Source: Sycon ciliatum
Taxonomy: Eukaryota; Porifera; Calcarea; Leucosolenida; Sycettidae
Reading direction: 5' to 3'
NCBI RefSeq assembly: GCF_964019385.1
Contig: NC_088646.1
Location: 40,753,584 to 40,817,583 of the forward strand
Length of the DNA: 64,000 nt
Below the pieces are notes generated by a model. That model was not told the DNA's origin and did no database searches. It saw only the letters and a list, made by a program, of their open reading frames with translations. Positions 3,613 to 27,447 of this stretch are shown in pieces (the first letter of the stretch is position 1; the number at the start of each line of letters is the position of its first letter). A program made the translations under genes and the position numbers.

Positions 3613-6581
3613 ATGGAAAGTCACTCGTGGCTCGATCCTGAGGATGTCGTCATGGTCGAGCCAGTTGATGGAGCTGGTAATGCTGTTGGTCAAGTCACCA
3701 GACCTCTATCACCGCTCCGTGCCTACAATACGCGCAGCAGTATGCGGTCGAATCAAAGTGAAGCGACCAGCAGCATTTCTCCCAGCAGAGTTGCATCCAC
3801 TGTTGTGCCGCCGTCAAGGCGCTGTCCACTGCCGAACCTTTCCACCGCTCACTCCGCCGCCAGGACGCCTATTAGCAGCAGTACGCCGGCGAATGAGTTT
3901 GAGCGGGGAGAAGATGGTGATGATGCAGTGTTGTGGTGCGCAGACTCGCCAGATGATGATGATGGTGGACATATGACTGTGTATATTGCGCCGCCGAGAG
4001 AAGACAGCGTTTACGACAGGGTGGACATTGGTCAGACGCGATGTGCAATTTGCACTGAGATGTTAGCGTCGCTGGACTCACTCAACAAGCACCACGAGGC
4101 ACACATAGGTATGTTTCCATCTTTAAAATGGACATGGTGTTTGGCTTGTACAGCACATGTCCTGTAGTCTGTACCCGCTTAATACATACACCTGCTTATT
4201 TATTTATTTATTTATTTCACTCAACTCGTGGTCCATGACCAATTGGCACGCAAAGTGCGAGATAGGGATGATAGCCAACCACGGCAAGAAAAAAAAAGAA
4301 GGGAATAAAGAAGGATAGACAAGCAGCCAGCAAGAGAGATCCTATTGTGCTTCGTTATGTGATCGGAGAGCATTTTTAAAGCTGGGAAGACATTTTGATA
4401 TCTTAACTTGCTGAGGTTAGGGCAGACGTTATCTACAGGTCTGCTCTCGATATAACAACTCTCACTTGTACATAAACCTCGCTAGTAAGTAAAAAAATCG
4501 AATAAAAAAAATCAAATCCCGCGCCGAAACAGCATCACTCCCAAACAAATTTTGTTCTACACAACATAATCTACATAACATAAACCTCGACATAACACAC
4601 GCTACGGCGCGGTCCCCGACGTGCACACTCTCGATACAACGTAAATTCACCTGCACGGTACGATCAAGCAGTAGCTGTTGCTAGGCATTTTAGGCCAGTT
4701 TAGTCCTACATAACGTAAACCTCGGCATAACGCACCCTATGGCGCGGTCCCCGACGTGCGCACTCTCGATACAACGTAGAATCACGTGCGCGGTATGATC
4801 AAGCTGTAGCCGTAGCTAGCCAGTTTAGTCCTATTGTGCATATATTCTGCGGCATTGATGGTATCTGATGTCGATGGCGATACAGTGTGTATAATTATGT
4901 TTGCACGGTTAAACCTGCCTTGTAATACCCTTCATTTTGAGGTACACCTTGTATTTTACATACGTTTTTCTACATAACATAACTCTCGATATAGCATAAT
5001 TTTTGCGTGGTCCCAGAGAGTAGACCTGTACGGATTTCCTTCCGTAGGAGCGTATACAAATCCATGTGTATTGCACATACTCTGTTATGTCATGTAGCTG
5101 TGTTTGTGGCACTGACAGTCATTATCAGGTTGACTGCTTCCTGTATATGCGCCCGAATCATCATACACAGCGTGGAGAGGTTTGCGGATACTAGTATGTA
5201 CCGTATTACCCCGAATGTAAGTCACACCTTTTTACACTAAACTTCAAGAGCAAAGAAGGGGGTGTGACTTACCCCATCGAGCGTGACTTCCTACTTCTTC
5301 ATTAGTTTGAGGCAGTTGCAAAGGGAAGAAAACTGGACTGTCACCATCTGGACTCGACCCAGGGACCCTCGCTTATGGCCATTGCTTGCATATAGCACGT
5401 GACCAAGAGATCATGTGAGAGTTGCCAAGAGGCGGCGGTGAAGTGCCAGCATAGCGACAGCCCCAAGCACAAGCTTTGTTGTTTTAATTTAAAGGTGACA
5501 AGGCCCTCCCTCTGCCCTTTGTAACTTTCTATGCAAACATTCCTATCCTTGTTTTTTGCAGACGCGTATCAGAAGAAGTCCTCCGGGGTCCGGGCATACA
5601 CGTGTGAGGTGTGCGATAAGGACCTCCAGCAGCGGTTCAACCTGCTACGCCACTACCTTGTACATGCGGACGTTCGTCCGTACGAGTGCTGTGTGTGTTT
5701 CAAGCGCTTTCGCGAGGAGCGTAACCTGCGCAAACACATGCCGCAGCATTCCAGCGAGAAGCGATTTGAGTGCGATCAATGCGACAAGAAGTATTTTTCT
5801 AAGCAATCGCTGGGTCATCACCAGGCCACCAAACACAAAGGTAGGTTACATGTGTTTGACACAGTACATGCACAGGTGTATGTCACTGCACATGCACAGG
5901 TGTATGTCACTGTATATGTACAGGTGTATGTCACAGTACATGTACAGTTGCGCTCACTGAAATCTGGCCCGTTGTGCAAAACTGACACCCTGGACCAGTT
6001 CCGATTACATCACTGTGCTTGTACATGTGTACGTCCAGCCGTATTCGTGTCACTTCCAGGGCATCATGGGCCGTGCAAGTTGAGGATGCTAAATATGCAG
6101 TTTGGGTCAGATTTCACCAAGCATGACTGTACATCTACTGTATGATACAGTATGATACAGTATCATATCCGTGTGCATGTGCATGGCACTGTTTGTGTGT
6201 ATTTTTACTTTTGGAAGAATTTGTAGTCGACAGACCGTTTTTTGGGTAGTGGTGTATAATAGTGTGAAACACGTAGGGCTCATCATTATTATTCTTATTA
6301 TTATTATTATTCTTTATTCTCACTCATCGTTGCCATGTTGTTCTGCACTGTGACTTTGGGTGTTTTGCCCTTTGATGGCTTTGGTGTGAGTGCAGATGTT
6401 GTCAAGCGCTTTCAGTGCAAGTACTGTCACGTGGCGTTTGCTGCACCCAGTGATTGCAGTCGACACGAGATCAGTCACACTCGAGCGCCGCAGCACCAGT
6501 GCGGCTCGTGCAGCCTCTCCTTCAACAGGATCAACCAACTCACTGCGCACGAACTGGAAGTACACGATGTTGACTCTAATG
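3613..6581 (+). CDS. zinc-finger gene module 1 (exons A, B, C)
   Basis: Exon A (3613-4108) encodes residues 1-165. It has an acidic, serine-rich head with a DSPDDDDGG run and one finger starting CAIC. Its 5' side follows a UG-rich tract and a CTTTTTCCAG acceptor, so a 5' untranslated exon probably lies upstream. Exon B (5562-5840) carries three fingers: CEVC with HYLVH, CCVC with HMPQH, and CDQC with HQATKH. Exon C (6396-6581) carries two fingers, CKYC with HEISH and CGSC with HELEVH. Donors are GTATGT, GTAGGT and GTGAGC. Intron A-B holds a tandem duplication of about 135 bp (4565-4835) and a SINE fragment. Intron B-C holds four copies of a 24-bp repeat (5860-5945). Confidence 0.8.

Positions 6582-27447: not shown

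What the first reader, a model, noticed from the sequence alone, without database searches (positions are those of the whole stretch)
3613..27447. One 24-kb zinc-finger gene made of four repeated three-exon modules, all phase 1
Thirteen AG/GT-bounded segments all use the same phase and join into 1,524 codons without a stop. They read as A (1 finger), B (3 fingers), C (2 fingers) four times, then an acidic tail. Large finger arrays in animals are usually encoded in one exon; growth by duplicating whole exon trios is a different route and allows any exon or trio to be skipped in frame.
Basis: partly seen in the sequence, partly recalled or inferred. Interest (0 to 1): 0.88.

Follow-up and report, generated by a model that had tools for sequence, protein, structure and literature searches.

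The report
Zinc-finger gene grown by exon-block duplication
This looks like one large DNA-binding-protein gene whose finger clusters were multiplied by copying blocks of interchangeable exons, most recently by a small in-frame tandem duplication inside the gene; it is an unusually clear example of a known kind of gene growth.

Summary
The 13 segments are real: GT-AG borders, all phase 1, 1,524 codons plus a stop. The finger motif occurs 24 times, against a mean of 0.03 in 30 shuffles. A paralogue on another contig of the same genome (C7) carries one copy of the same A-B-C-tail layout with the same phase-1 borders. That supports the borders and shows the likely ancestral unit. Only module 1 has a start codon ahead of its finger and the window has one tail, so one gene is much likelier than four.

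Corrections: module 4's A exon has two fingers, as in the paralogue, so there are 25 (one atypical). The modules are not equal. Modules 1, 2 and 4 are old and diverged; modules 2 and 3 stem from one recent tandem duplication of a ~4.5-kb segment (6319-10864) whose unit is C-A-B, not A-B-C, with both ends inside phase-1 introns. Aligned exons differ by 2.5%, introns by 3.8%. No transcript data were available; splicing, exon skipping and DNA targets are untested, and an assembly artefact is not excluded. "Usually one exon" holds for long human arrays, not zebrafish (PMC1553488).

The parts
3613..4108 (+). Exon A1: start codon (in-frame TGA one codon upstream), 143-residue finger-free region, 1 C2H2 finger; ends phase 1
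5562..5840 (+). Exon B1: 3 fingers, phase 1-1
6396..6581 (+). Exon C1: 2 fingers, phase 1-1 (copy 1 of recent duplication)
9006..9416 (+). Exon A2: linker + 1 finger, phase 1-1 (copy 1)
10189..10464 (+). Exon B2: 3 fingers, phase 1-1 (copy 1)
11451..11636 (+). Exon C2: 2 fingers, phase 1-1 (copy 2 of C1; 59 of 61 aligned aa identical)
17344..17718 (+). Exon A3: linker + 1 finger (copy 2 of A2; 116 of 124 aligned aa identical; 36 nt shorter, in frame, at its start)
18485..18760 (+). Exon B3: 3 fingers (copy 2 of B2; 90 of 91 aa identical)
19318..19509 (+). Exon C3: 2 fingers, phase 1-1; outside the duplicated segment
20429..21217 (+). Exon A4: long linker + 2 fingers, as in the C7 paralogue
22919..23200 (+). 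Exon B4: 3 fingers, third with atypical HX6H spacing
26160..26351 (+). Exon C4: 2 fingers; best-scoring match in the genome outside the window is the C7 paralogue (59%)
26813..27447 (+). Tail exon: acidic, repetitive 211-aa tail (50 D/E, 13 K/R) and TGA stop; only copy found in the window
6319..10864 (+). First copy of the recent tandem duplication (C1-A2-B2), about 4,546 bp
10865..19161 (+). Second copy (C2-A3-B3), enlarged by insertions; junction at 10864/10865 with about 4 bp (CTCA) shared, read by eye
10923..11422 (+). Insertion with 22-nt terminal inverted repeats (95% complementary) in copy 2, ending 28 bp before exon C2 (MITE-like is my reading)

Best explanation
A single C2H2 zinc-finger gene encodes a 1,524-aa protein with four DNA-binding modules. 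Each module is a lone finger (two in module 4) followed by a nearly continuous five-finger array (three in exon B, two in exon C). Modules are separated by finger-free linkers of 108-210 residues and followed by one acidic tail. Shown from sequence: the anatomy, the phase-1 borders, the single-module paralogue, and the duplicated C-A-B segment. Inferred: the ancestor had one A(2 fingers)-B-C-tail set; the gene gained modules by intragenic tandem duplications with breakpoints in phase-1 introns, so each kept the frame; the most recent raised the count from three modules to four. Inferred function: a multivalent sequence-specific DNA-binding regulator in which each five-finger array reads a related site and the acidic tail contacts partners. 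Conserved likely contact residues at two finger positions (B finger 2 ER[N/T][K/Q]; C finger 1 xSDR) suggest the modules share part of their specificity.
For: 4,575-nt open chain, all phase 1. C7 paralogue with A-B-C-tail and the same phase-1 junctions; it is the best-scoring match outside the window for the B2 query (56%) and for the C4 query (59%). A2-A4 have no in-frame ATG between the preceding stop and the acceptor, and tblastn of the tail against the window finds only its own exon plus chance-level pieces (E 3.5 and above). Duplicated blocks 6319-10868 vs 10865-19161; mismatches 21 of 841 aligned exon bases, 110 of 2,881 aligned intron bases; exon lengths differ only between A2 and A3, by 36 nt, in frame. 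Pooled over C1/C2, A2/A3, B2/B3: 10 synonymous changes in ~188 sites vs 11 nonsynonymous in ~640, Fisher p 0.014 on rounded counts. B exons of old modules: dN/dS 0.14 and 0.20 for the two pairs whose dS could be computed.
Against: No transcript evidence. A2 and A3 donors are weak, and C1, C2, A4 and C4 acceptors have only 8 of 16 pyrimidines, A4 and C4 lying in GT repeats. No AATAAA/ATTAAA within 1 kb after the stop; first AATAAA at 29376. For A2/A3 alone dN/dS is 0.66, and C1/C2 has 0 synonymous and 2 nonsynonymous changes, so evidence of selection on the copies rests mainly on B. Between old modules, C exons give dN/dS 0.31-0.65 and A fingers 0.28-0.63, weaker than B, with high dS throughout (0.73-2.9 or not computable). 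Tail similarity to the C7 tail is limited to position, phase and a few residues; tblastn gave only one chance match. Likely contact positions are about as conserved as others (73 of 144 vs 165 of 360), so shared specificity is only suggested.
Confidence: 0.8

Rival explanations
1. Four tandem genes, each A-B-C, wrongly joined by reading across gene ends.
For: Six AATAAA/ATTAAA hexamers lie in the C2-A3 gap; tandem clusters of finger genes exist elsewhere in this genome.
Against: Only A1 has a start codon ahead of its finger region; one tail was found; reading past the C exon donors reaches a stop within 2 to about 90 codons, and the C1-A2 and C3-A4 gaps have no AATAAA/ATTAAA. All six C2-A3 hexamers lie in the two stretches that do not align to the C1-A2 intron (11686-13301 and 14695-17024).
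Confidence: 0.07
2. The C-A-B duplication is an assembly artefact: two haplotypes joined head to tail, the true gene having three modules.
For: Intron mismatch of 3.8% is within reach of very heterozygous invertebrates (recalled), and insertions differ between copies.
Against: No N in the window; sharp junction with about 4 bp shared; no third near-identical B2 copy was listed among 313 contigs (a capped list; the DNA search meant to check this did not complete); pooled excess of synonymous change, which alleles could also show. None of these excludes it.
Confidence: 0.1
3. One gene once, but some modules (especially 3) are now skipped or decaying.
For: Weak A2/A3 donors; an element with terminal inverted repeats inserted 28 bp before C2; dN/dS 0.66 for A2/A3.
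Against: All modules open; the fingers of modules 2 and 3 keep the motif's zinc ligands; B2/B3 dN/dS 0.04.
Confidence: 0.15

Closest known systems
Long C2H2 zinc-finger repeats spread over several exons (Bjorklund et al. 2006, PMC1553488; passages and section 11 read)
   Same: Long finger array on several exons; units of several fingers duplicated (units of six and two shown there for two human proteins).
   Different: Here the unit is a block of three symmetric phase-1 exons and the latest duplication's breakpoints can be read in the DNA.
Nebulin super-repeats (seven domains in a four-exon block, PMC1553488)
   Same: A multi-exon block recurs within one gene.
   Different: Nebulin exon borders fall inside domains; here borders fall between finger groups, all phase 1.
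C2H2 clusters with long open frames elsewhere in this genome and human KRAB/PRDM9-type arrays (recalled)
   Same: C2H2 arrays.
   Different: Those arrays appear to lie in one exon (one own-genome frame read whole; human 78% of long repeats in PMC1553488); here the array is split over 12 exons.
C7 paralogue in the same genome (A exon from C7:4526205, tail exon from C7:4532392, its end not determined)
   Same: A(2 terminal fingers)-B(3)-C(2)-tail with phase-1 junctions.
   Different: One module only, and a very long A exon with extra irregular fingers.

Membership tests
C2H2 zinc-finger protein (Pfam PF00096/PF13894) | Repeated CX2CX12HX3-5H fingers scoring above the curated cut-off | tested here: met
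   PF00096 174.5 bits vs 25.2; PF13894 192.8 vs 27; 24 motifs
C2H2 zinc-finger protein (Pfam PF00096/PF13894) | Sequence-specific DNA binding | not testable with these tools
   Only sequence similarity to solved finger arrays such as ZNF568 and CTCF
Gene grown by intragenic duplication of symmetric (1-1) exons | Internal exons divisible by 3 and flanked by introns of one phase | tested here: met
   11 of 11 internal exons
Gene grown by intragenic duplication of symmetric (1-1) exons | Duplication breakpoints within introns | tested here: met
   6319 (B1-C1 intron) and 10864 (B2-C2 intron); only for the recent event, and only if the assembly is right
KRAB-type arms-race zinc-finger genes | Accelerated change at DNA-contact positions | tested here: inconclusive
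   73 of 144 pairwise identities at contact positions vs 165 of 360 elsewhere, modules 1, 2, 4 and C7; a crude count between modules, not a test between species
KRAB-type arms-race zinc-finger genes | KRAB domain | tested here: not met
   Not among the 7 Pfam families reported at E up to 0.001 for the 1,524-aa protein
Single transcription unit | Full-length spliced transcript | not testable with these tools
   No RNA data held

The most novel reading that the evidence does not exclude
Module number in this gene is a fast-evolving, perhaps polymorphic trait: because every A-B, B-C and C-A intron is phase 1, any recombination between the introns adds or removes whole DNA-reading modules in frame, and splicing can do the same per transcript, so the protein works as a length-adjustable multivalent DNA reader.
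Probability: 0.2. Interest if true: 0.7.

Novelty: new variant of a known kind. Interest (0 to 1): 0.45.

Why it matters
The genome preserves a one-module paralogue, diverged old modules and one recent, readable intragenic duplication. It therefore shows how a finger array can grow by exon blocks instead of inside one exon, and it can be tested directly by counting modules in other individuals and species and by long-read RNA.

Tried and rejected
Related sequences elsewhere: one scan of genome contigs (bacteria and archaea) with exon B2 gave 48 pattern hits and no confirmed relative; the viral collection was not scanned, so module number in other species could not be tested. The own-genome search for COX1 found nothing, so the organism was not placed; the search for C1-set domains did not complete. 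Trees of the B and C exons (5 short rows each) left the older module order unresolved: B support 68/75 at the key split; C1 and C2 group together, but C3, C4 and C7 form one open fork. Residues before the A finger (V-D/E-I-G-Q/E-T in A1 and A2; G-I-F-P in A4 and C7) hint that modules 1 and 2 are sisters and module 4 is closest to C7, but this was read by eye. The tail did not match the C7 region by tblastn beyond chance; the tail search of the whole genome did not complete. Papers: eight searches. Searches held no paper; the others gave listings, of which one search showed 15 of 44 and one search showed 15 of 64. No listed title or abstract start describes a zinc-finger gene built of duplicated symmetric exon trios. 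Only PMC1553488 (passages and section 11) and PMC6444547 (passages) were opened, so this is weak evidence of absence. No structure prediction was run.

Full report
Setting. The window is C4:40753584-40817583 of an unnamed 538-Mb genome in 313 contigs. The organism was not identified; a COX1 search of the assembly found nothing. That it is an animal is my inference from gene content and genome size.

The observation. Thirteen segments between 3613 and 27447 join with GT-AG borders, every junction in phase 1, to 4,575 nt: 1,524 codons and TGA. The 11 internal exons all have lengths divisible by three, and the used frame has no internal stop in any segment. CX2CX12HX3-5H occurs 24 times in this stretch, against a mean of 0.03 in 30 dinucleotide shuffles, and not at all in 27448-64000. 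The start codon follows an in-frame TGA by one codon. Two corrections: exon A4 has two fingers, and the third finger of B4 has HX6H spacing, giving 25 fingers.

Independent support for the borders. The exon C4 query gave the C7 locus as its best match outside the window (59%, E 1.9e-20), ahead of C3 in the window itself (46%); other listed matches, mostly on contig C11, reach 53% identity but score lower. The C7 locus carries an A exon ending in two fingers, a three-finger B exon and a two-finger C exon, all joined in phase 1 at the same places relative to the fingers, then a tail exon beginning at the same phase. The tail match is positional plus a few residues; tblastn found no more than a chance match, and the end of the C7 tail exon was not determined. 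This gives the likely ancestral unit: A (two fingers), B, C, tail.

One gene or four. A2, A3 and A4 have no in-frame ATG between the preceding stop and their acceptor, and their first methionine is residue 62, 50 and 101 of the exon; only A1 has a start ahead of its finger region. tblastn of the tail finds only its own exon in the window apart from chance-level pieces. Separate genes would lack both ends. Against this, no transcript was seen, some splice signals are weak, and the nearest AATAAA after the stop is at 29376.

How it grew. Block comparison shows that 6319-10868 recurs as 10865-19161. The copied unit holds C1-A2-B2 and became C2-A3-B3; both ends lie in B-C introns. The junction at 10864/10865 shares about four bases, CTCA, read by eye. 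The unit is thus a rotated trio, C-A-B, and it would have turned a three-module gene into a four-module one. The copies also differ by large unaligned stretches: one with 22-nt terminal inverted repeats at 10923-11422, one of 1,616 bp facing 760 bp, and one of 2,330 bp facing 6 bp in the C-A intron. Mismatches are 21 of 841 aligned bases in exons and 110 of 2,881 in introns; the exon pairs differ in length only in A2/A3, by 36 nt, in frame. Pooled over the three exon pairs there are 10 synonymous changes in about 188 sites and 11 nonsynonymous in about 640 (Fisher p 0.014 on rounded counts). By pair: B2/B3 dN/dS 0.04, A2/A3 0.66, C1/C2 no synonymous and two nonsynonymous changes. The constraint is therefore clearest in B. 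An assembly artefact joining two haplotypes is not excluded: there is no N in the window and no third near-identical B2 copy was listed, but a direct DNA search of the genome did not complete.

The older modules. Modules 1, 2 and 4 and the C7 gene are 42-54% identical over 84 compared finger positions, zinc ligands left out. Their window B exons have dN near 0.4; dS is 2.9 and 2.2 for two pairs and beyond calculation for the third. C exons give dN/dS 0.31-0.65 and A fingers 0.28-0.63. Trees do not resolve their order.

What the protein probably does. In each module the B and C fingers follow one another at linkers of seven or eight residues, so they form a near-continuous five-finger array (in module 4 the atypical third B finger lies inside it); the last A finger stands 14-15 residues before it, and 108-210 residues separate the modules. 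The tail has 50 acidic and 13 basic residues in 211. Likely DNA-contact residues, by the standard -1, 2, 3, 6 assignment (recalled), are ER[N/T][K/Q] in B finger 2 and xSDR in C finger 1 of all four compared modules, while other fingers vary. Overall the contact positions are not less conserved than the rest (73 of 144 vs 165 of 360), which gives no sign of an arms race, though this is a crude count. The best reading is a multivalent DNA-binding regulator with related sites per module and an acidic tail for partners; the function is inferred.

Comparison. In PMC1553488 (passages and section 11 read), 78% of long human C2H2 repeats lie in one exon but only 11% in zebrafish, multi-finger units are duplicated in human proteins, and nebulin repeats a four-exon block. 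Clustered finger genes with varied exon number also occur in an insect expansion (PMC6444547, passages read). So the route is known in kind. What is distinctive is the strict phase-1 exon trio in a finger gene, the rotated unit of the latest event with readable breakpoints, and the one-module relative in the same genome. Exon skipping remains possible but untested. On re-checking the calls I lowered the best explanation from 0.85 to 0.80 and raised the artefact rival from 0.08 to 0.10, because the direct genome search for a third copy did not complete.

Noticed in passing
window 1443-2543 (+): Open frame matching PNMA (E 6e-8) and, below cut-off, retrotransposon gag, just upstream of the gene.
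   Followed up: partly
window 15542-16705 (-): 387-aa open frame inside the 2,330-bp stretch of the C2-A3 intron that has no counterpart in copy 1; no Pfam match. A mobile-element gene is my guess.
   Followed up: partly
window 47035-47694 (-): Piece of a flavin-containing monooxygenase-like gene (PF00743, E 1e-39).
   Followed up: no
window 62053-63009 (-): Integrase zinc-binding domain, probably of a retroelement (PF17921, E 6e-10).
   Followed up: no
G000:C11 about 24.8-27.3 Mb, C1 about 51.9-52.5 Mb, C8 about 6.9-7.2 Mb: Dense clusters of C2H2 matches, many in open frames of about 400-600 aa; one frame read whole has a finger-free N-terminal half and a C-terminal finger array (L001).
   Followed up: no
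G000:C7:4526205-4529277 (+): The paralogue's very long A exon has long glutamine runs and an internally repeated pair of irregular fingers.
   Followed up: no
window 30726-30798 (-): tRNA-Lys (CTT) gene.
   Followed up: no
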